A stretch of DNA of 64,000 bases, from NCBI RefSeq assembly GCF_006538745.1, contig NZ_BJLR01000013.1, positions 186,001 to 250,000 on the forward strand. The letters are read 5' to 3'. The DNA comes from Cellulomonas cellasea. GTDB taxonomy: Bacteria > Actinomycetota > Actinomycetes > Actinomycetales > Cellulomonadaceae. The translations under genes and the position numbers were made by a program. Positions 34,833 to 63,855 of the stretch are shown here, one piece after another (position 1 is the stretch's first letter; each line of letters begins with the position of its first letter). Below the pieces are notes generated by a model, which did no database searches, had not been told where the DNA came from, and worked only from the letters and a program-made list of their open reading frames with translations.

Positions 34833-35237
34833 TCACAGCTCGCGGATGTGGAGCAGCGACCGCACGCCGAGCCGGCGCCGGACCGCGGGCTCGGTCAGGC
34901 CGTCGACCAGCACCGCCAGCCCGAGCCACGTCGCGTCCGCCTGCTCCACGAGGGCTCGTGCACCGAGGGCCTGGCCCCCGGTGGCCACCCAGTCGTCGAC
35001 GAGGAGCACCCGGTCCGCGGAGCCGACGAGGTCCCGCCGGATGCCGAGGTCCAGCTGCTTGTCGTGGTGGTCCGGCGGGGTCCGGGCCTGCAGCCAGGCA
35101 GCTCCGCCCGCACGTCGTCGGGGGCTCGCGCGGGTGACCTGCTCACCGGAGGGAGTGTGGCCGACGCGCAGCCCGCGGGCACGGGTTTTCGCGGGTGATC
35201 CGGAGCAGCGCGCCCGGGCGCCGGTGACGGGGTTCAC
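34833..35237 (-). pseudogene. Truncated phosphoribosyltransferase-family gene
   Basis: The readable frame gives at most 134 residues. Its C-terminal 85 residues match the second half of a type I phosphoribosyltransferase: TPPDHHDKQLDLGIRRDLVG, then the PRPP loop VLLVDDWVATGGQA, then LGLAVLVDGL and VRRRLGVRSLL. The first half of the fold, which supplies the substrate hood and early strands, is missing. The region upstream reads as Arg/Pro/Ala-rich noise and runs into the opposite-strand radical SAM gene. It is most likely a 5'-truncated relic; a sequencing frameshift is an alternative. Confidence 0.6.
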
Positions 35238-35292
35238 ACCCCTGAGGGGCCGGTGCGCGGACGCCCCGCAGACCTCGGGGCGTTGTACCGGT

Positions 35293-36453
35293 GTGACGAC
35301 ACCGACCCCGTCCGCTCACCGCCCCGACGCCCCCGCCCGCACCGCCGCAGCGGCCCCGCCGGCGGCACCCGCCGCGACACCGACCCCGTCCCGCCCGCGC
35401 CCGCTGCTCGACGTCCGTCGGATCTACGTCGAGCCCGAGGCCGCCGAGCTGCCCCGCGGGCGCGAGGTGCTCGCGCGCTGGCCCGACGCCGAGCGCGTCG
35501 AGGTCGCCTCGCACTGGAACATCCCGGAGCTGCACGGCGACGAGGCCAACGTCGACCGCTGGGTGCGGATCAAGACCGAGGCGCTCGTCCTCGGGGTCAA
35601 GAAGTCGCTCGCCGCGAGGCCGAACGGGCGCTCGTCGGACTTCGTCGCGCCCTCGACCGCGAACGGCTGCGCGATGGCGTGCGCGTACTGCTACGTCCCC
35701 CGGCGCAAGGGCTACAGCAACCCGATCACGGTGTTCGCGAACATCGACCGGATCACCGGGTACCTCGCGCGCCACGTCGCCCGGCAGGGCGTCAAGGCCG
35801 AGCCGAACCAGTGCGACCCGCAGGCGTGGGTCTACGACATCGGGGAGAACAGCGACTGCTCGGTCGACGCGACCGTCAGCGACAACGTGCGCGACCTCGT
35901 CGACCTGTTCCGCGGCCTGCCGACCGCGAAGGCGTCGTTCGCGACGAAGCACGTGAACCGCGACCTGCTCGACTGGGACCCGCGCGGCCGCACACGCGTG
36001 CGGTTCTCGCTCATGCCCGACCGGGTCGCGCGCCTCGTCGACGTCCGGACCTCGCGGGTCGCCGAGCGGATCGCCGCGATCGACGACTTCGTCGAGGCCG
36101 GGTACGAGGTGCACCTCAACTTCAGCCCCGTGATCGTGCACGACGGCTGGCTCGCCGACTGGGCCGAGCTGCTCGACCAGGTCGAGGCCGGGATCGGCGC
36201 CAAGGCCAAGGCCCAGCTCGCGTGCGAGGTCATCATGCTCACGCACAACCAGGCGCTCCACGAGGTCAACCTCGGCTGGCACCCCAAGGCCGAGCAGGTG
36301 CTGTGGCGGCCGGACCTGCAGCAGCCCAAGCGCTCGGAGACGGGCGGCTGGAACGTGCGCTACCGCACGGGCGACAAGGGCCGGTACGTCGCGGCGCTCA
36401 CGGACCTGATCGCCGAGCGGCTCCCGTCGTGCCGGGTGCGGTACGCGTTCTGA
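35293..36453 (+). CDS. Radical SAM protein, spore photoproduct lyase family
   Basis: A 386-residue protein. The radical SAM cluster motif is CAMACAYC (C-x3-C-x2-C). Around it lie family landmarks of SplB-like proteins: HWNIPELHGDEANVDRWVRIK, YVPRRKGYSNPI, FSLMPDRVARLVDVRTS and HLNFSPVIVHDG. The N-terminal 38 residues are a Thr/Pro/Ala-rich extension. GTG 35293 is the first plausible start. Non-sporulating actinobacteria commonly carry this family; DNA repair of thymine photoproducts is possible but not shown. It overlaps nothing and faces away from the truncated phosphoribosyltransferase. Confidence 0.9.
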   Translation: MTTPTPSAHRPDAPARTAAAAPPAAPAATPTPSRPRPLLDVRRIYVEPEAAELPRGREVLARWPDAERVEVASHWNIPELHGDEANVDRWVRIKTEALVLGVKKSLAARPNGRSSDFVAPSTANGCAMACAYCYVPRRKGYSNPITVFANIDRITGYLARHVARQGVKAEPNQCDPQAWVYDIGENSDCSVDATVSDNVRDLVDLFRGLPTAKASFATKHVNRDLLDWDPRGRTRVRFSLMPDRVARLVDVRTSRVAERIAAIDDFVEAGYEVHLNFSPVIVHDGWLADWAELLDQVEAGIGAKAKAQLACEVIMLTHNQALHEVNLGWHPKAEQVLWRPDLQQPKRSETGGWNVRYRTGDKGRYVAALTDLIAERLPSCRVRYAF

Positions 36454-40873: not shown

Positions 40874-41072
40874 CCCTCGCACGCGGCCGCACAGCCGCTC
40901 CCGAGGTACTCCGGAGGGGTGCTCCGCGGCCCGGCGCGAACTTGGTCACGTGCCCGACTTGTCCCTTGACGTTAGCCCGAACGGGTGAACTACTGGACCG
41001 GGCCGCGGGGTCCCACGCAACGGGGCAACGGAGCCCCGACGCTCCCGCGGCGGCACCCGAGGGAGTGTGTCC

Positions 41073-43823
41073 ATGCCACCTGCACGAGTCAGTTCCGCGC
41101 GCCTGCGCGTCGTCGTCACCCTGTCCGCGGCGGCCCTCGTCGTCTCCGCCGGAGCCGCGTCCGCGGCCACCCCCGACCTCGACCGCGAGGCCGCAACCGC
41201 CGAGCGGCTCCAGCCGCAGTCGTTCCCCACGACGTGGTGGTGGGACGAGTCCGAGGAGGACACCGAGCGGGCCCGTGACCTGCTGCGTCAGATGACCTTG
41301 GACGAGAAGGTCAACATGATGCACGGCGAGCTGAACAACTACTACGGGTTCTACAACGGCCCGATCGAGCGCCTCGGCATCCCGGCGCTCACCATGGCCG
41401 ACGGCCCCGCCGGCGTGCGGATCGCCAACCCGGACGTGAACGACCAGGAGGCCACCCAGCTCCCCGCGCCGATCGCGCTCGCGGCGACGTGGGACCGGGA
41501 CCTCGCGCAGCAGTACGGCGACGTCGAGGGCGACGAGGCGTTCCGCACGGGGCACAACGTGCTGCTCTCGCCCGCGGTCGACATCGCGCGCGTCGCACAG
41601 GCCGGGCGGGCGTTCGAGGCGCTCGGGGAGGACCCGCTGCTGTCCGGGACCATGGGCGCGGGGGTCATCCGGGGCATCCAGTCCCACCCGGTCGTCGCGG
41701 ACATCAAGCACTACAACGTCTACACGCAGGAGACGAACCGCCTGTCCGGCGGCAACGCGGTCGTCGAGGAGCGCGCGCTCCAGGAGATCTACACGCGGCC
41801 GTTCGCGATCGGCATCGAGCAGGGCCGCCCCGGCTCGGCGATGTGCGCGTTCAACAAGGTCAACGGCGTGTGGGCGTGCGAGAGCGACGAGCTGCTCAAC
41901 CAGATCCTCAAGGAGCAGCTCGACTTCCAGGGCTGGGTCATGAGCGACTACGGCGCCACCCACAGCACCGTGCAGGCGGCGAACGCGGGCCTCGACCAGG
42001 AGATGCCGGGCAACACGACCCCCGACGTCGGACCCGGGACCTGCTACTTCTGCGGTCCGCTGCTCGACGCGGTGCGCTCCGGGCAGGTCCCCGAGTCGCG
42101 CGTGGACGACGCGGTGCTGCGCATCCTGCGGCCGATGTTCGGCCTGGGGCTGTTCGACCACCCGCCGGTGATCGAGCCGCTGCCCGAGGCGGAGCACGGC
42201 GCGTTCGCCCGGCTCGTCGCCGAGCGCGCGATGGTGCTGCTCAAGAACGACGGCGGCGCGCTGCCGCTGACCGACTCGGTCGGCTCCATCGCGGTGATCG
42301 GGGCGGACGCCGACTCGGTCGTCGCCGGTGGGGGCAGCTCGCTCGTGAAGCCCACCTACACGGTCAGCCCGCTGCAGGGCATCCAGGACCGCGTCGCCGC
42401 CGGGGTCGACGTGCGGCACGTCGCGGGCGCCGACCCCGTCACGTCCGCGTCGCTCATCCCGGGCCCCGACCCGATCCCGTCGGACTTCCTCACGTCCGCG
42501 CTCGGCGACGGCGCCGGCCTGCGCGCCGAGTACTTCTCCACGCAGGACTTCTCCGGCGAGACCATCGCAGACCGCACCGACCCGTACGCCGCGATCAACG
42601 CCGGGTTCTTCCTGTTCGAGGGCTTCAACTCGCAGTCCCCGGACTTCCCGGTGCAGACCCGCGACATGGGGGCCTCGATCCGGTGGACGGGTGAGCTCAC
42701 GGCGCCGACGACCGGGACGTACGAGCTCGCGGTCACCACCACCGGCAGCGCCGTGGTCTACCTCGACGACGTGGCGGTCCTCACCGCGACCCCGTCAGGC
42801 TCCTCGGCGCCGACGACCACGACGGCCGCGGTCGACCTCGAGGCGGGTGTCGCACGCGACCTCCGCGTCGAGTTCGTCAACAACGGCCCCGGCGGGACCG
42901 ACGCCGGTGCGGTCTTCCAGCTCGGGTGGACGACGCCCGAGGGGGTCGTCGCACCGCAGGCGCTCGAGGCGGCGGCGCTCGCCCGCAGCTCGCAGGCGGC
43001 GGTCGTCGTCGTGCGCGACTACTCGAGCGAGGGCGGCGACAAGCCGGACCTCGACCTGCCCAACGGCCAGGTCGAGCTCATCCGCCAGGTCGCCGCGGCG
43101 AACCCGCGCACGGTCGTGGTGCTCGCGACCGGGGGTGCCGTCCAGACGTCCGACTGGGAGGACGGCGTGCCGGCGATCGTGCACTCGTGGTTCGGCGGCC
43201 AGGAGCAGGGCAACGCCCTCGCGGGCATCCTGTTCGGCGACGTCAACCCGTCCGGGAAGCTGCCGGTCACGATGCCCGTGGACGAGGAGAGCACGCCGGT
43301 CAGCGCGCCCGAGCAGTTCCCGGGCGACGGGCTCGACCAGCAGTTCTCCGAGGGCATCTACGTCGGCTACCGCGGCTACGAGGAGTTCGACATCGAGCCG
43401 CAGTACCCGTTCGGCCACGGCCTGTCCTACACGACGTTCGACTACCGCAACCTGCGCACGAGCATCAACGCGGGCGGCGGGCAGGACGGGGACGGCGCGC
43501 AGCTGCGGGTGCGCGTCGCGGTCCGCAACACCGGGACCGTCGCGGGCACCGAGACCGTGCAGGTCTACGTCGGCAACCTGCCGACCCGCCGGGTCGAGAG
43601 CTCCCCGAAGGTGCTCGCGGGCTGGGAGACCGTGACCCTGCAGCCGGGGGAGCGGCGCCAGGTCACCGTGACGCTGAGCCCGGAGTCGGTGTCGTACTGG
43701 GACGTCGACCGTGACCGGTGGCAGACGCCGCGCGGCACGATCCCGGTCTACGTCGGCTCGTCGTCGACGGACGTCCGGCTGACCGGCTCGCTGCGGATCG
43801 GGGGCAGCGCGCTGCTGCCGTGA
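41073..43823 (+). CDS. Secreted GH3 beta-glucosidase with PA14 insert
   Basis: A 916-residue exoenzyme. The signal peptide (1-31) ends SAGAASAA. The GH3 N-terminal barrel has LTMADGPAGVRI and nucleophile D292 (GWVMSDYGATHS). The GH3 C-terminal domain (about 380 onward) is interrupted by a PA14 beta-barrel (about 480-625, LRAEYFSTQDFSGETI to YELAVTTTGSAVVYLDDV). A fibronectin III-like domain ends the protein. GAGGGAG sits 7 bases before ATG 41073, which is preferred over an in-frame GTG at 41067. It should hydrolyse cello- or gentio-oligosaccharides outside the cell; the PA14 insert usually tunes substrate length. Confidence 0.94.
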   Translation: MPPARVSSARLRVVVTLSAAALVVSAGAASAATPDLDREAATAERLQPQSFPTTWWWDESEEDTERARDLLRQMTLDEKVNMMHGELNNYYGFYNGPIERLGIPALTMADGPAGVRIANPDVNDQEATQLPAPIALAATWDRDLAQQYGDVEGDEAFRTGHNVLLSPAVDIARVAQAGRAFEALGEDPLLSGTMGAGVIRGIQSHPVVADIKHYNVYTQETNRLSGGNAVVEERALQEIYTRPFAIGIEQGRPGSAMCAFNKVNGVWACESDELLNQILKEQLDFQGWVMSDYGATHSTVQAANAGLDQEMPGNTTPDVGPGTCYFCGPLLDAVRSGQVPESRVDDAVLRILRPMFGLGLFDHPPVIEPLPEAEHGAFARLVAERAMVLLKNDGGALPLTDSVGSIAVIGADADSVVAGGGSSLVKPTYTVSPLQGIQDRVAAGVDVRHVAGADPVTSASLIPGPDPIPSDFLTSALGDGAGLRAEYFSTQDFSGETIADRTDPYAAINAGFFLFEGFNSQSPDFPVQTRDMGASIRWTGELTAPTTGTYELAVTTTGSAVVYLDDVAVLTATPSGSSAPTTTTAAVDLEAGVARDLRVEFVNNGPGGTDAGAVFQLGWTTPEGVVAPQALEAAALARSSQAAVVVVRDYSSEGGDKPDLDLPNGQVELIRQVAAANPRTVVVLATGGAVQTSDWEDGVPAIVHSWFGGQEQGNALAGILFGDVNPSGKLPVTMPVDEESTPVSAPEQFPGDGLDQQFSEGIYVGYRGYEEFDIEPQYPFGHGLSYTTFDYRNLRTSINAGGGQDGDGAQLRVRVAVRNTGTVAGTETVQVYVGNLPTRRVESSPKVLAGWETVTLQPGERRQVTVTLSPESVSYWDVDRDRWQTPRGTIPVYVGSSSTDVRLTGSLRIGGSALLP

Positions 43824-59264: not shown

Positions 59265-61409
59265 GTGTCCGGCGTTGCCGTGGACGGGAGCGACGAGCGC
59301 GCGGGTGCGCCGGCGTGGCACGTGCACGCCGCCGCGTACACCGCGCTGTACGAGCGCAGCGGTGACGGCTTCCTCCTGACGAACCCGGCGGGTGGCATCC
59401 TCACCGCGAACCCGGCGGCCTGCCGGATGCTCGGACGCTCCGAGGCCGAGCTCCGTCGGGTCGGGCGCGCGGGCGTGATCGACCCGGAGGATTCGCGCTG
59501 GGAGAGGGCCATCGCGACCCGCAACGCCGACGGGTACTTCCAGGGCGAGCTGCGCGCCCGCCGGGCCGACGGCTCCACGTTCCCGGTCGACCTGTCGTCG
59601 GCCGTCGTGTCCCAGGACACCGCGATCGTGCTGTTCCGGGACCTCTCGCGCGTCGCCGAGGTCGTCGCGCGGGCAGAGAACGTGCACCGCGCCGCGACCA
59701 CGGTCATCGACCTGCTCGAGACGATCAGCGAGGGCTACTTCGCGCTCGACGAGGACTGGCGGTTCTCCTACGTCAACCGGCACGGAGAGCGGATCATGGG
59801 CGTCGAGCGCGCCGACGTGCTCGGCCGCGTCTTCTGGGAGGTCTTCCCCCAGCTCCTCGGCTCGCCGCTCGAGACGTCCTACCGGCACGTCATGGCGACC
59901 GGCGAGCCCGTCGAGTTCGAGGGCTCCTACGGGCCGCTCCAGATCCGCTGCGAGGTGCGCGGTCACCGGCTCCCGAGCGGCGGCATGTGCGTGTACTTCC
60001 GGGACATCGTCGAGCGGCACGCCGCGCAGCGGGAGCGTGAGGAGCTGCTGATCCGGCAGCAGGCGGCCCGCGCCGCGGCCGAGGAGGCGCGCGCGGCGGC
60101 GGAGGAGGCGCAGCGCGTGCTGACCGAGCACGCCACGCACGACACGGTGACCGGCCTGCTCAACCGGTGGGGGCTGCTGCGCGAGGTCCGCCGGCTCGGC
60201 GACGGCCCGGCGTCCGCGGACCCCGGGCTGGTGCTGCTGTTCATCGACCTGGACCGGTTCAAGCTCGTGAACGACACGCTCGGCCACGTCGCCGGCGACC
60301 AGGTGCTCAGCGCCGTCGCGGACCGCCTGCGCGAGCTCATCGGCCCTCGGGACCTGCTCGCGCGGTTCGGCGGCGACGAGTTCGTCGTCGTCCTCCCCGG
60401 GGCGTCGGCCTCGGCGGCCGAGACGCTCGCGCGCCGGATCGTCGAGTCCGGCGACGACCCCGTCGTCATCGGCAGCACCCTCCTGCCGGTCACCACGAGC
60501 ATCGGGCTCGCGCACGCGACCAGGGCCGACGAGATCGACACGCTGCTGCGCGAGGCCGACGCCGCGCTGCACCGGGTCAAGGCCGGCGGGCGCGACGGGT
60601 TCACGTGGTTCGACGAGGTCCTCCACCAGCAGACCGTCCAGCGCGTCGAGACCGAGCTCGAGCTGCGGCGCGGGCTCACCGCCGGTGACGGTCTCGTGCT
60701 GCACTACCAGCCGGCGTTCGAGCTCGGGCCCCACCCCGGCGTCGCGCACGTCGAGGCGCTCGCGCGGTGGAGCGGCCCCGGTCCTGGCCTGGTGCCCCCG
60801 GCCGCGTTCATCCCCGTGGCCGAGGAGTCCGGGCTCATCGTGGCGCTCGGGGCGCAGGTCGTGGCCCGCGCTGTCGAGCAGATCGCCCGCTGGTCCGACC
60901 GGCCCGGCGTGCGCGTGTGGGTCAACGTCTCCCCGCGCCAGCTCGCGCTGCCCGGCCTGGCCGACCTCCTCGCGCGGCGGCTCGACGAGGCGGGCGTCGC
61001 CGCCGACCGCCTCGGCATCGAGGTCACCGAGCAGGCGATGGACGACAGCCGGCTCGTCGCGCACCTCGAGGCCGTCCGCCGCCTCGGGGTCGCCGTCGCG
61101 ATCGACGACTTCGGGACCGGCTACAGCTCGCTCTCACGCCTCGCGCAGGCCCCCGTCGACGTCATCAAGGTCGACCGCTCGTTCGTCACCGCGACCGGCA
61201 CCCCCAAGGGCCGGGCCGTCGTCGACGGCATCGTTCGCCTGGCCCACTCGATCGGCGCGCACGTCATCGCGGAGGGCATCGAGACCCCCGAGCAGCTCGA
61301 CGCGATCACCGGCGTGGGGGCCGACGCCGCGACCGGGTTCCTGCTCGCCCGGCCCGAGCCCGCGGAGTCCGTCTCGTGGGAGAGCCGGTTCCCGCTGTCG
61401 TGGCGCTGA
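59265..61409 (+). CDS. PAS-PAS-GGDEF-EAL cyclic-di-GMP enzyme
   Basis: A 714-residue soluble protein. Two PAS domains (about 22-130 and 145-255) and a short Ala/Glu coiled coil (about 255-290) precede a GGDEF domain with intact GGDEF at 369-373. The EAL domain has the EAL motif at 497-499, DDFGTGYSSL and EGIET. In the last EAL motif the usual Q-G is replaced (DAATGFLLARP), so phosphodiesterase activity may be changed. GTG 59265 is the most upstream plausible start. It should make and/or break c-di-GMP in response to a small ligand or redox signal sensed by the PAS domains. Confidence 0.92.
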   Translation: MSGVAVDGSDERAGAPAWHVHAAAYTALYERSGDGFLLTNPAGGILTANPAACRMLGRSEAELRRVGRAGVIDPEDSRWERAIATRNADGYFQGELRARRADGSTFPVDLSSAVVSQDTAIVLFRDLSRVAEVVARAENVHRAATTVIDLLETISEGYFALDEDWRFSYVNRHGERIMGVERADVLGRVFWEVFPQLLGSPLETSYRHVMATGEPVEFEGSYGPLQIRCEVRGHRLPSGGMCVYFRDIVERHAAQREREELLIRQQAARAAAEEARAAAEEAQRVLTEHATHDTVTGLLNRWGLLREVRRLGDGPASADPGLVLLFIDLDRFKLVNDTLGHVAGDQVLSAVADRLRELIGPRDLLARFGGDEFVVVLPGASASAAETLARRIVESGDDPVVIGSTLLPVTTSIGLAHATRADEIDTLLREADAALHRVKAGGRDGFTWFDEVLHQQTVQRVETELELRRGLTAGDGLVLHYQPAFELGPHPGVAHVEALARWSGPGPGLVPPAAFIPVAEESGLIVALGAQVVARAVEQIARWSDRPGVRVWVNVSPRQLALPGLADLLARRLDEAGVAADRLGIEVTEQAMDDSRLVAHLEAVRRLGVAVAIDDFGTGYSSLSRLAQAPVDVIKVDRSFVTATGTPKGRAVVDGIVRLAHSIGAHVIAEGIETPEQLDAITGVGADAATGFLLARPEPAESVSWESRFPLSWR

Positions 61410-61690: not shown

Positions 61691-61872
61691 CCGCGGGGCG
61701 TGAACGGGCCCGGACGACCGGAGAGGACCGGCCCCGGCCCGGCGGACCGGCGCAGACCGACCCGCACGACGTTTCCGTTATCCGCCCCCGTCCGGGTGGT
61801 CTCCCTCCGTGTGGGCGGTGCACGCGCCGGCCCGCGCGATGATCGACTGCCCCCACGGAGAGGTCCCCCGCC

Positions 61873-63855
61873 ATGCAGCCCACCCCGGACACCGCGACGG
61901 TCGTCGCCGCGCGCGCCGGCGACCCCGACGCGGTCGACCGGCTCGTCGCCGGGTACCTGCCGCTCGTGTACTCCGTCGTCGGCCGGGCCCTGCGCGGGCA
62001 CGCGGACGTCGACGACGTGGTGCAGGAGACGATGCTGCGTGCGCTGCGGGGGCTCGGTGACCTGCGCGACCCCGAGGCGTTCCGGTCGTGGCTCGTCGCG
62101 ATCGCCGTCCGGCAGGTGCGCGAGCGGCACCGCGTGCAGGGGGCGGCCCCCGGCGCGCTGCCCGACGACGGGGCCGACGGCGACCCCGGTGCCGACTTCA
62201 CCGACCTCGCGATCGTGCGGCTCGAGCTCTCGGGCCAGCGCCGCGAGACCGCGGAGGCGACGCGCTGGCTCGACGAGGACGACCGCGAGCTGCTGTCGCT
62301 GTGGTGGCTCGAGGCCTCGGGCGAGCTCACGCGCGACGAGATCGTCGACGCGCTCGACGTGACGCGGGCGCACGCCGCCGTCCGCGTCCAACGCATGAAG
62401 GGTCAGCTCGAGACCGCACGCGTCGTGGTCCGGGCCCTCGCCGCGACGCCGCCGTGCGCCGACCTGCTCGTGGTCACCGCCGGGTGGGACGGGCGCCCGG
62501 CGCCGCTGTGGCGCAAGCGGGTCGCGCGGCACACCCGCGAGTGCCCGCAGTGCGCGCCCGCGTGGCACGGTCTCGTCGCCGCCGACCGGCTGCTCGTGGG
62601 GCTCGGGCTCGTCCCCGTGCCGCTCGCGCTGGCGGCGCTGCGGGACGGGCTGGTCCCGGGCCTGCCCGCCGTCGCACCGGGTGTCGCACCCGTGCTGACG
62701 CCGGTCGACGCCACGGCGCTCGCGCACGTCCCCGGGCAGACCGCGGGCGGCGCGCTCGGGCACGCCGGGACGAACGCCGGGGCGCACGCGGCGTCGGGCC
62801 ACGGGCTCGCCGGCAAGCTCGCCATCGCCGCAGGGACGCGCGTCGGGCGCGGCGTGCTCGTGGCGGCGCTCACCACGTCCGCCGTCGCCGGGGTCGGCAC
62901 CGCGGTGGCCGTCGGGCAGCGCGAGCCGGCCCCCGAGACCGTGGTCGCGGCGACCTCGACCCCCGTGCCGGGCGACCCGGCGCCGGCGCCCACGCCGACC
63001 GCACCCGCACCCGACCCCGCGCTCGTCCCGCCCGCGGTCCTCGAGCCGCCCGTCGAGGCCCCGGCCCCGCCCGTCGAGCAGCCCGACCCGCCCGCCCCCG
63101 AGCCGGCGCCCGTCGCCGCCGCGTCGGCCAAGAAGGGCGTCGCGACCTGGCAGTTCGACGGCATCAGCGGGGCGCTCGGCGACGTCGGCGCGGGCTGGTA
63201 CTACAACTGGTCCGAGTCGAACGCGAGCATGCCCGGGCCGGACGGCGTCGAGTTCGTGCCGATGATCTGGGGGCGCGACTCGGTGACCGACGCGACGCTC
63301 GCGCGGGCCGCGTCCGAGGGCACGACGCTGCTGGGCTTCAACGAGCCGGACCTCGCGGAGCAGTCGGCCATGAGCGTCGAGGAGGCGCTCGCGGCCTGGC
63401 CTCGGCTCGAGGCCACCGGCATGCGGCTCGGCAGCCCCGCGGTCGCGTGGGGCGGCGACACCCCGGGCGGCTGGCTCGACCGGTTCATGACCGGCGCGCG
63501 CGCGGAGGGCCGGCGCGTCGACTTCATCACGCTGCACTGGTACGGCTCCGACTTCAGCGACGCCGCCGTCGGGCACTTCCTGGGGTACGTCGACGCCGTG
63601 CACGAGCGCTACGGGCTGCCCGTCTGGGTCACCGAGTACGGGCTGATGAACTTCGGCGGCAGCCCGCGCTACCCGTCGGGGCCGCAGCTCGCCGCGTTCA
63701 TCGAGGGCTCGACCGCCGGCATGGAGGCGCGGCCCTACGTCGAGCGGTACGCGTGGTTCGGGCTGCCGGCCGTCGGGGACAGCGCGGCGTTCGGGCTCTA
63801 CACCGACGCCGCGACGCCGACCGAGGCCGGGCGGGCGTACCGCGCGGCGGGCTGA
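61873..63855 (+). CDS. ECF sigma factor fused through a membrane segment to a GH128-like glucanase
   Basis: A 660-residue multidomain protein. Sigma-2 is at about 20-90 (VDDVVQETMLRALRGLGDLRDPEAFRSWL, family style) and sigma-4 at about 140-185 (LTRDEIVDALDVTRAHAAVRVQRMKGQL, family style). A zinc-finger-like H220-x3-C224-x2-C227 (HTRECPQC) resembles an anti-sigma fold. One membrane segment (about 324-345) and a Pro/Ala-rich linker (345-420) follow. The GH128/Asl1-like glycosyl hydrolase domain runs from about 420 to 660 with acid E491 (GFNEPDL) and nucleophile E588 (WVTEYGL). A possible GGAG site precedes ATG 61873. The protein would place a beta-1,3-glucanase-like domain outside the cell and a sigma factor inside (inference). 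Confidence 0.88.
   Translation: MQPTPDTATVVAARAGDPDAVDRLVAGYLPLVYSVVGRALRGHADVDDVVQETMLRALRGLGDLRDPEAFRSWLVAIAVRQVRERHRVQGAAPGALPDDGADGDPGADFTDLAIVRLELSGQRRETAEATRWLDEDDRELLSLWWLEASGELTRDEIVDALDVTRAHAAVRVQRMKGQLETARVVVRALAATPPCADLLVVTAGWDGRPAPLWRKRVARHTRECPQCAPAWHGLVAADRLLVGLGLVPVPLALAALRDGLVPGLPAVAPGVAPVLTPVDATALAHVPGQTAGGALGHAGTNAGAHAASGHGLAGKLAIAAGTRVGRGVLVAALTTSAVAGVGTAVAVGQREPAPETVVAATSTPVPGDPAPAPTPTAPAPDPALVPPAVLEPPVEAPAPPVEQPDPPAPEPAPVAAASAKKGVATWQFDGISGALGDVGAGWYYNWSESNASMPGPDGVEFVPMIWGRDSVTDATLARAASEGTTLLGFNEPDLAEQSAMSVEEALAAWPRLEATGMRLGSPAVAWGGDTPGGWLDRFMTGARAEGRRVDFITLHWYGSDFSDAAVGHFLGYVDAVHERYGLPVWVTEYGLMNFGGSPRYPSGPQLAAFIEGSTAGMEARPYVERYAWFGLPAVGDSAAFGLYTDAATPTEAGRAYRAAG

What the first reader, a model, noticed from the sequence alone, without database searches (positions are those of the whole stretch)
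61873..63855. One polypeptide joins an ECF sigma factor, an anti-sigma-like zinc motif, a membrane helix and a GH128-like glucanase
In sequence: sigma-2 and sigma-4 regions, then HTRECPQC, a single membrane segment, a Pro-rich linker, and a complete glycosidase-like domain with both Glu residues (E491, E588). Established: ECF sigma factors with membrane and extracytoplasmic C-terminal extensions exist in actinobacteria, and RsgI-type anti-sigma factors of cellulolytic clostridia carry outside carbohydrate modules. Inference: binding or cleavage of beta-glucan outside is transmitted to a tethered sigma factor, perhaps with release by proteolysis. The reading frame is continuous, so it is not two adjacent genes.
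Basis: partly seen in the sequence, partly recalled or inferred. Interest (0 to 1): 0.75.

Follow-up and report, generated by a model that had tools for sequence, protein, structure and literature searches.

The report
Membrane sigma factor with glucanase head
A soil bacterium's gene-switching protein is built in one piece with a domain that looks like an enzyme for cutting fungal-type beta-1,3-glucan, and in related bacteria the same switch signal sits in front of glucan-cutting enzyme genes, so it is probably a one-piece sugar sensor.

Summary
Window 61873-63855 (+) is one 660-codon frame: ECF sigma domains, a Cys/His cluster, a membrane segment, a Pro-rich linker and a GH128 subgroup I domain with both catalytic Glu. 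I found 69 distinct intact fusions (window included) and two broken ones. The architecture class is in print: a 2024 review says some ECF52/ECF53 proteins carry predicted glycosyl hydrolase domains, unvalidated. So: new member of a known kind. New here: (1) 66 of 69 fusion genes have GTTRT-N18/19-TCTCC upstream; the exact pattern occurs once in the window's genome, at this gene. (2) In relatives exact sites precede GH16 beta-1,3-glucanase-type genes (21 genomes, all with the fusion), DUF1996 genes (10), BTAD/SARP regulators (8) and one GH64 gene. (3) The same chassis carries CAP, AbfB or ricin-type heads elsewhere. Best reading: a one-polypeptide beta-1,3-glucan sensor that switches on itself and, in relatives, glucanases. 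Against: no second exact site in the window's own genome; none before GH128 genes that lack a sigma part; 12 fusion genomes have a GH16 relative without an exact site; one GH16 site lies in a genome where I did not see the fusion. No experiment was done.

The parts
61777..61804 (+). Predicted autoregulatory ECF promoter GTTATC-N16-GTCTCC
   Evidence: Same bipartite site in 66 of 69 fusion upstream regions; only exact match of GTTATN{16,18}RTCTCC in the window's genome; only match without mismatch in the window
61857..61863 (+). Likely ribosome binding site GGAGAGG
   Evidence: Read from sequence; not tested
61873..63855 (+). CDS, 660 aa plus stop: ECF sigma - Cys/His cluster - membrane segment - linker - GH128
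61942..62139 (+). Sigma region 2 (residues 24-89)
   Evidence: Pfam PF04542 E 4.4e-14
62233..62442 (+). Sigma region 4 helices (residues 121-190)
   Evidence: TIGR02937 match 19-181; helices in model; Pfam sigma-4 model not reached
62455..62553 (+). ZAS-like cluster C195...H220-x3-C224-x2-C227
   Evidence: Invariant in alignments of 18 and 30 sequences; HxxxCxxC in 69 of 69 fusions; Pfam zf-HC2 not detected
62851..62913 (+). Predicted membrane segment (residues 327-347)
   Evidence: Hydropathy peak; pLDDT under 50 in model
62920..63123 (+). Pro/Ala/Thr-rich linker (residues 350-417)
   Evidence: mostly low confidence in model
63130..63852 (+). GH128 subgroup I domain (residues 420-660)
   Evidence: Pfam PF11790; 6UAQ 59% identity, TM-score 0.96 over the target
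63343..63345 (+). Codon of E491
   Evidence: Invariant 68/68 other fusions and 55/55 GH128 without sigma
63634..63636 (+). Codon of E588
   Evidence: Invariant 68/68 and 55/55; aligns with the Glu changed to Gln in 6UFL

Best explanation
A one-polypeptide beta-1,3-glucan sensor and transcription switch. The cytoplasmic ECF sigma domains are held inactive by their own fused ZAS-like segment at the membrane; the GH128 domain reaches outside on a Pro-rich linker. When it engages beta-1,3-glucan (most likely fungal, yeast, plant callose or laminarin-type), the sigma part is set free or uncovered, probably by proteolysis. It then transcribes its own gene from GTTATC-N16-GTCTCC and, in relatives, genes for beta-1,3-glucanases (GH16, GH64), a DUF1996 protein and a BTAD/SARP regulator. 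Shown by sequence: the architecture, its conservation, the kept active site, the promoter-like site and where it lies. Inferred: outside location, glucan as signal, inhibition in cis, proteolytic release, secretion of the target enzymes, and that this sigma reads those promoters.
For: 69 intact fusions in several actinobacterial families. Catalytic core invariant; nearest solved structures are GH128 subgroup I endo-beta-1,3-glucanases. Site in 66 of 69 fusions with GTTRT (64 with GTTAT; resampled sequences give 0.01 for GTTAT..TCTCC and 0.4 for the loosest pattern), in 34 of 45 members with another or broken C-terminus, in 0 of 57 GH128 genes without sigma. 24 fusion genomes: 67 exact sites against 7 for the reversed pattern; 23 are the fusion's own promoter, 9 precede GH16, 5 DUF1996, 7 BTAD/SARP. 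200-genome draw: in 18 of the 46 genomes whose rows were printed the site lies about 100 bp before the GH16 match, and both fusion parts were seen in all 18. More distant GH16 relatives: 0 strict sites in 19 readable loci (fusion status unknown). GH16 target: closest solved chains are glucanases, mostly named beta-1,3. One GH64-CBM6 gene has the site and lies beside the start of a sigma gene of this family. Published parallel: SigI6 is autoregulated and drives xylanase promoters while RsgI6 carries a GH10 domain (PMC4711584, passages).
Against: No transcript, binding or activity data. Own genome: one exact site only, the gene itself; sites with mismatches were not searched genome-wide. 0 of 57 GH128 genes without sigma have the site. 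Of the 30 best GH16 relatives 13 have an exact site and 17 do not (two of the 17 could not be read); both fusion parts were seen in 12 of those 17 genomes. GH16 promoters often have a palindrome between the two elements and a TTGACT-type promoter below it (by eye), so another regulator acts there. In G944 an exact site precedes a different GH16 gene, and G944 and G962 hold sites identical to SARP sites, but I did not see the fusion in either. Which places I fetched was partly my choice.
Confidence: 0.58

Rival explanations
1. The GH128 domain is a working cell-tethered glucanase, and the sigma part answers another cue such as membrane or wall stress; sigma activity serves mainly to make more of the tethered enzyme.
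For: Active site invariant; AmGH128_I is an endo-beta-1,3-glucanase by its PDB title; in the window's genome the only exact site is its own promoter; members with the same chassis carry CAP heads with no obvious sugar role.
Against: Sites before GH16 and GH64 genes in relatives match the head's likely substrate.
Confidence: 0.16
2. The head reads a self-made or envelope glucan, or a developmental state, as proposed for ECF52 SCO4117, rather than food or prey.
For: SCO4117, a similar build with a carbohydrate-binding module, affects differentiation and antibiotics (PMC5826349, passages); several predicted targets are BTAD/SARP-type regulators.
Against: Targets include GH16 with a ricin-type lectin domain and GH64 with CBM6, which suit digestion of outside glucan.
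Confidence: 0.13
3. The sites in front of GH16, DUF1996 and SARP genes are read by another sigma factor, and the fusion has a different or no regulon.
For: Members with CAP heads have the same promoter type, so recognition is not unique to the GH128 form. G944 has an exact site before a GH16-F5/8C gene, and G944 and G962 have sites identical to SARP sites, with no fusion seen there; it was looked for only at some sites.
Against: In G757 the three exact sites are the fusion, GH16 and a SARP. The fusion was seen in 21 of 21 genomes with the P0002-type GH16 site, 10 of 10 with the DUF1996 site and 8 of 8 with a read SARP site.
Confidence: 0.12
4. Assembly or reading-frame artefact joining two genes.
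For: Two of 71 fusion loci are split in their assemblies.
Against: 69 intact fusions, down to about 47% identity.
Confidence: 0.01

Closest known systems
ECF52/ECF53 sigma factors with C-terminal extensions (Actinobacteria; SCO4117 for ECF52)
   Same: ECF sigma, zinc finger, membrane helix or helices, Pro-rich stretch, outside carbohydrate domain in one polypeptide; GH domains already predicted in some members (PMC10766802, PMC8999054, PMC5826349, passages)
   Different: The sigma part does not match the ECF52-type NPCBM protein L217 (BLAST E 0.19); the head is GH128; the promoter differs from the SCO4117 motif CSGYN-17bp-SRHA printed in PMC5826349
Clostridial SigI/RsgI, above all SigI6-RsgI6 (GH10 head)
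   Same: Outside glycosidase-family head, membrane segment, sigma factor that autoregulates and drives enzymes acting on the same kind of polymer (PMC4711584, passages)
   Different: There sigma and anti-sigma are separate proteins; here all is one chain and the ZAS-like part is fused to the sigma
AmGH128_I, GH128 subgroup I endo-beta-1,3-glucanase (6UAQ)
   Same: 59% identity, TM-score 0.96 over the target, both catalytic Glu
   Different: AmGH128_I comes from a 296-aa open frame without a sigma part (100% match)
IutY, Pseudomonas putida (ECF243)
   Same: Sigma and membrane anti-sigma fused, activated by proteolysis (PMC8999054, passage)
   Different: Iron-starvation cell-surface signalling with the siderophore aerobactin, not a glycosidase head

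Membership tests
[quoted passage not shown]
   PF04542, TIGR02937 19-181, fold matches to SigE, AlgU, CnrH, SigW; the sigma-4 Pfam model itself is not reached
ZAS (zinc anti-sigma) segment | Conserved Cys/His cluster HxxxCxxC with a further ligand (definition recalled) | tested here: met
   C195, H220, C224, C227 invariant; 69 of 69; but Pfam zf-HC2 not detected; zinc binding not testable
ECF52 | Sequence kinship with the SCO4117 type | tested here: not met
   NPCBM-type protein L217 aligns only at BLAST E 0.19; a proxy, SCO4117 itself was not in hand
ECF53 | Match to the ECF53 group model or its representative WP_030276194.1 | not testable with these tools
   No ECF group models here; reference papers not held
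GH128 subgroup I | Fold and both catalytic Glu | tested here: met
GH128 subgroup I | Endo-beta-1,3-glucanase activity | not testable with these tools
   Needs an enzyme assay
RsgI anti-sigma | Separate anti-sigma protein with an RsgI N-terminal domain | tested here: not met
   One chain; no such Pfam match

The most novel reading that the evidence does not exclude
A plug-in receptor family: one sigma-ZAS-membrane chassis with its own promoter carries exchangeable outside heads (GH128, CAP, AbfB, ricin-type), and the GH128 form is a catalytically intact enzyme used as a beta-1,3-glucan (fungal wall) receptor whose regulon in relatives includes GH16/GH64 glucanases and DUF1996 proteins, making DUF1996 a candidate glucan-acting family. 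Members with AbfB or ricin heads lack the shared promoter (0 of 5), as expected if signals are kept apart.
Probability: 0.35. Interest if true: 0.8.

Novelty: new member of a known kind. Interest (0 to 1): 0.6.

Why it matters
Fused ECF sigma factors with carbohydrate-type heads have been catalogued for years, but a 2024 review states that the predicted GH domains have had no experimental validation (PMC10766802, passage). A conserved promoter plus named target enzymes turns this into a direct test: one reporter, one sugar, one truncated sigma. It also gives DUF1996 a functional lead in bacteria and offers natural head swaps for sensor engineering.

Tried and rejected
Idea: the solved AmGH128_I is itself cut from a sigma fusion. 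Rejected: its 100% match lies in a 296-aa frame. Idea: the sigma drives GH128 genes that lack a sigma part. Not supported: 0 of 57 upstream regions have the site (two of the 57 are pieces of broken fusions, and some starts are guesses), though 21 of 297 genomes of one family have both forms (35 with fusion, one of them broken, 47 with a GH128 without sigma; Fisher p 9e-11, kinship not controlled). Idea: a conserved neighbour partner. In the 30 largest clusters printed, neighbours are shared only within clades. Idea: ECF52 membership. Not met by proxy. Sites at C5 of G457 and in three relatives look like coding sequence, by eye. A site in six genomes at the end of an SDR gene, antisense, is unexplained. 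Trees: the window's sigma part groups with Cellulomonas and then Actinoplanes-type fusions, the GH128 tree agrees, so horizontal transfer is likely; quick trees only. Not done: genome-wide search with mismatches in the own genome, and the fusion search over the 200-genome draw (failed, then cap). On rechecking I lowered the main reading from 0.60 to 0.58 and two rivals a little, because the odds summed to more than 1 and because the G944 site had been left out.

Full report
WHAT IS THERE. Window 61873-63855 (+) encodes 660 residues in one frame. Pfam finds Sigma70_r2 at 24-89 and Glyco_hydro_cc at 440-656; NCBIfam TIGR02937 covers 19-181. Between them lie C195 and H220-x3-C224-x2-C227, a hydrophobic segment near 327-347 (a weaker one at 235-257) and a Pro/Ala/Thr-rich linker. 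The AlphaFold model from 30 sequences has high confidence for most of the sigma part and the GH part, under 50 at 91-106, 243-254 and 257-393, and pTM 0.45, so the placement of the two halves relative to each other is unknown. Foldseek ranks 6UAQ first, a GH128 subgroup I endo-beta-1,3-glucanase, TM-score 0.96 over the target, 59% identity; further down come SigE-RseA, AlgU-MucA, CnrH-CnrY and SigW-RsiW. E491 and E588 are invariant in 68 of 68 other fusions and 55 of 55 GH128 without sigma (the pieces of two broken loci left out).

RELATIVES. With loci from genome searches, 171 distinct genes (counted once if their last 200 residues are identical) sorted into 69 intact fusions with the window's, 57 GH128 without sigma (two are pieces of broken fusions) and 45 sigma parts with another or broken C-terminus. 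Of the 45, 32 cluster as CAP type, 4 as AbfB, 1 is ricin-type, 2 share an unknown domain, 1 has no Pfam C-terminal match, 3 have poor frames and 2 are broken GH128 fusions (Pfam run on 8 of them). One search shows 26 more loci with both fusion parts by tblastn, partly the same species and not checked for one frame. One Dactylosporangium genome holds four members: GH128, two AbfB-type, one ricin-type. Own-family draw: 61 genomes, fusions in few of them. A phylum-wide draw found GH128-I in 3 of 396 genomes, own included; a draw from the Umezawaea family in 61 of 297: 35 with fusion, 47 with a form without sigma, 21 with both. In the sigma tree the window gene groups with Cellulomonas and then Actinoplanes-type fusions; the GH128 tree agrees and puts ricin-GH128 enzymes among fusions, so heads and free enzymes have been exchanged. 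Both are quick trees.

PROMOTER. Upstream regions (400 bp) of the fusions share GTTRT-N18/19-TCTCC, 61 of 66 at 60-109 bp before the start: 66 of 69 (64 with GTTAT), 34 of 45 other members by the loosest pattern, 0 of 57 GH128 without sigma. Sequences resampled with first-order base steps gave 0.01 fusions for GTTAT..TCTCC and 0.4 for the loosest pattern. The three fusions without it are L167, L168 and L170; none of the five AbfB/ricin members has it. That CGTC is a usual ECF -10 element is recalled. In the window the site is at 61777-61804, the only one without mismatch there; the pattern GTTATN{16,18}RTCTCC occurs once in the whole genome.

PREDICTED REGULON. In 24 fusion genomes the pattern has 67 exact sites, the reversed control 7. 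23 are the fusion's own promoter. Of the other 44 I fetched 33 and read the next gene: 9 GH16, 5 DUF1996, 7 BTAD/SARP; the other 12 are scattered, coding or unclear, and 11 were not read there. In 22 further genomes there were 45 sites, control 9: 22 own promoters (one of a CAP-type member), 4 before DUF1996 in genomes that group with Lentzea, 19 others. The GH16 target has GH16 and ricin-type lectin domains; its closest solved relatives are glucanases, mostly named beta-1,3; secretion is judged by eye from the N-terminus. In a 200-genome draw 159 have a GH16 relative and 155 have some exact site; the site table was cut after 46 genomes. By coordinates, in 18 of these 46 the site lies about 100 bp before the GH16 match. 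Both fusion parts were seen in all 18, and in the three further genomes with a GH16 site: 21 of 21. DUF1996 sites: 10 genomes, fusion seen in all; Pfam was run on one full protein and one fragment that scored below the cut-off, the rest by tblastn and one, G671, by eye. SARP sites read: 8 genomes, fusion seen in all. G946 has the site before a GH64-CBM6 gene (Pfam) divergent from the start of a sigma gene of this family, of which only residues 6-50 are on the fetched piece. G944 has the site 241 bp before a GH16 gene with F5/8-type domains; the fusion was not seen in G944. All places with DNA in hand, a set partly chosen by me: 193 distinct, 120 before a sigma of this family, 18 GH16, 9 DUF1996, 8 SARP, 1 GH64, 37 other.

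CONTROLS AND NEGATIVES. Of 20 loci before more distant GH16 relatives (63-68% identity) 19 are long enough; none has a strict site, one has a loose match, and 13 show GAGAGCGCTCTC by eye. These genomes were not tested for the fusion, so this shows contrast between lineages, not a test of cause. Among the 30 best GH16 relatives 13 have an exact site and 17 do not (two of the 17 unreadable); both fusion parts were seen in 12 of the 17 genomes. Several of the 17 keep one of the two elements. GH16 sites often have a CGGGTTCCGGAACCCG palindrome in the spacer, but G758, G759 and G762 keep both elements with a different spacer, so the elements are not just its flanks. G944 and G962 hold sites identical to SARP sites without a fusion seen.

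LITERATURE. Seen as passages: PMC10766802 (some ECF52 and ECF53 proteins have predicted glycosyl hydrolase and carbohydrate-binding domains, no experimental validation), PMC8999054 (ECF48, 52, 53 expected to be activated by proteolysis), PMC5826349 (SCO4117 build and motif), PMC4711584 (RsgI6 GH10 of very low activity that still binds; SigI6 autoregulated and active on xylanase promoters). The catalogues they cite (Huang 2015, Pinto 2019) and Casas-Pastor 2021 were not held. My ten searches listed no report of this promoter or of a GH128 sigma regulon; only listings were seen for most papers. GH128 with 'sigma factor' gave one paper, whose title concerns a lignocellulose consortium.

MECHANISM. 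By the SigI6-RsgI6 parallel I expect the head to act as a receptor for the polymer that the target enzymes cut. Unlike the low activity reported for the RsgI6 GH10 domain, the active site here is fully kept, so turnover may be part of the signal (for example a short-lived grip). Shown: build, conservation, site places. Inferred: topology, signal, inhibition in cis, release.

Noticed in passing
window 59265-61409 (+): PAS-GGDEF-EAL protein just upstream of the sigma fusion; no such neighbour stood out among the 30 largest neighbour clusters of the fusion loci.
   Followed up: partly
window 41067-43823 (+): GH3-type glycosidase with a PA14 domain inside its C-terminal domain and an Fn3-like tail; could act on glucan oligosaccharides.
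   Followed up: no
window 34846-36453 (+): Spore photoproduct lyase family match (Pfam SPL, E 1e-35) beside an SDR-type gene, in a genome whose nearest named fusion relative is Cellulomonas.
   Followed up: no
L295-L299, L310-L312, L236, L379: DUF1996 proteins of two families, about 37-39% identical between the groups, share the sigma promoter type.
   Followed up: partly
L301, L303, L370, L373, L387, L388: Exact promoter-like site near the 3' end of an SDR gene or its surroundings, pointing antisense, in six genomes; no explanation.
   Followed up: partly
L040, L078: Two relatives with the same sigma chassis share a C-terminal domain that matches nothing in Pfam at E 0.05.
   Followed up: no
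L041, L042, L048 and relatives, downstream: A gene with a weak, below cut-off GH30 match (one fragment scanned) lies convergent to the fusion in 11 of 69 loci.
   Followed up: no
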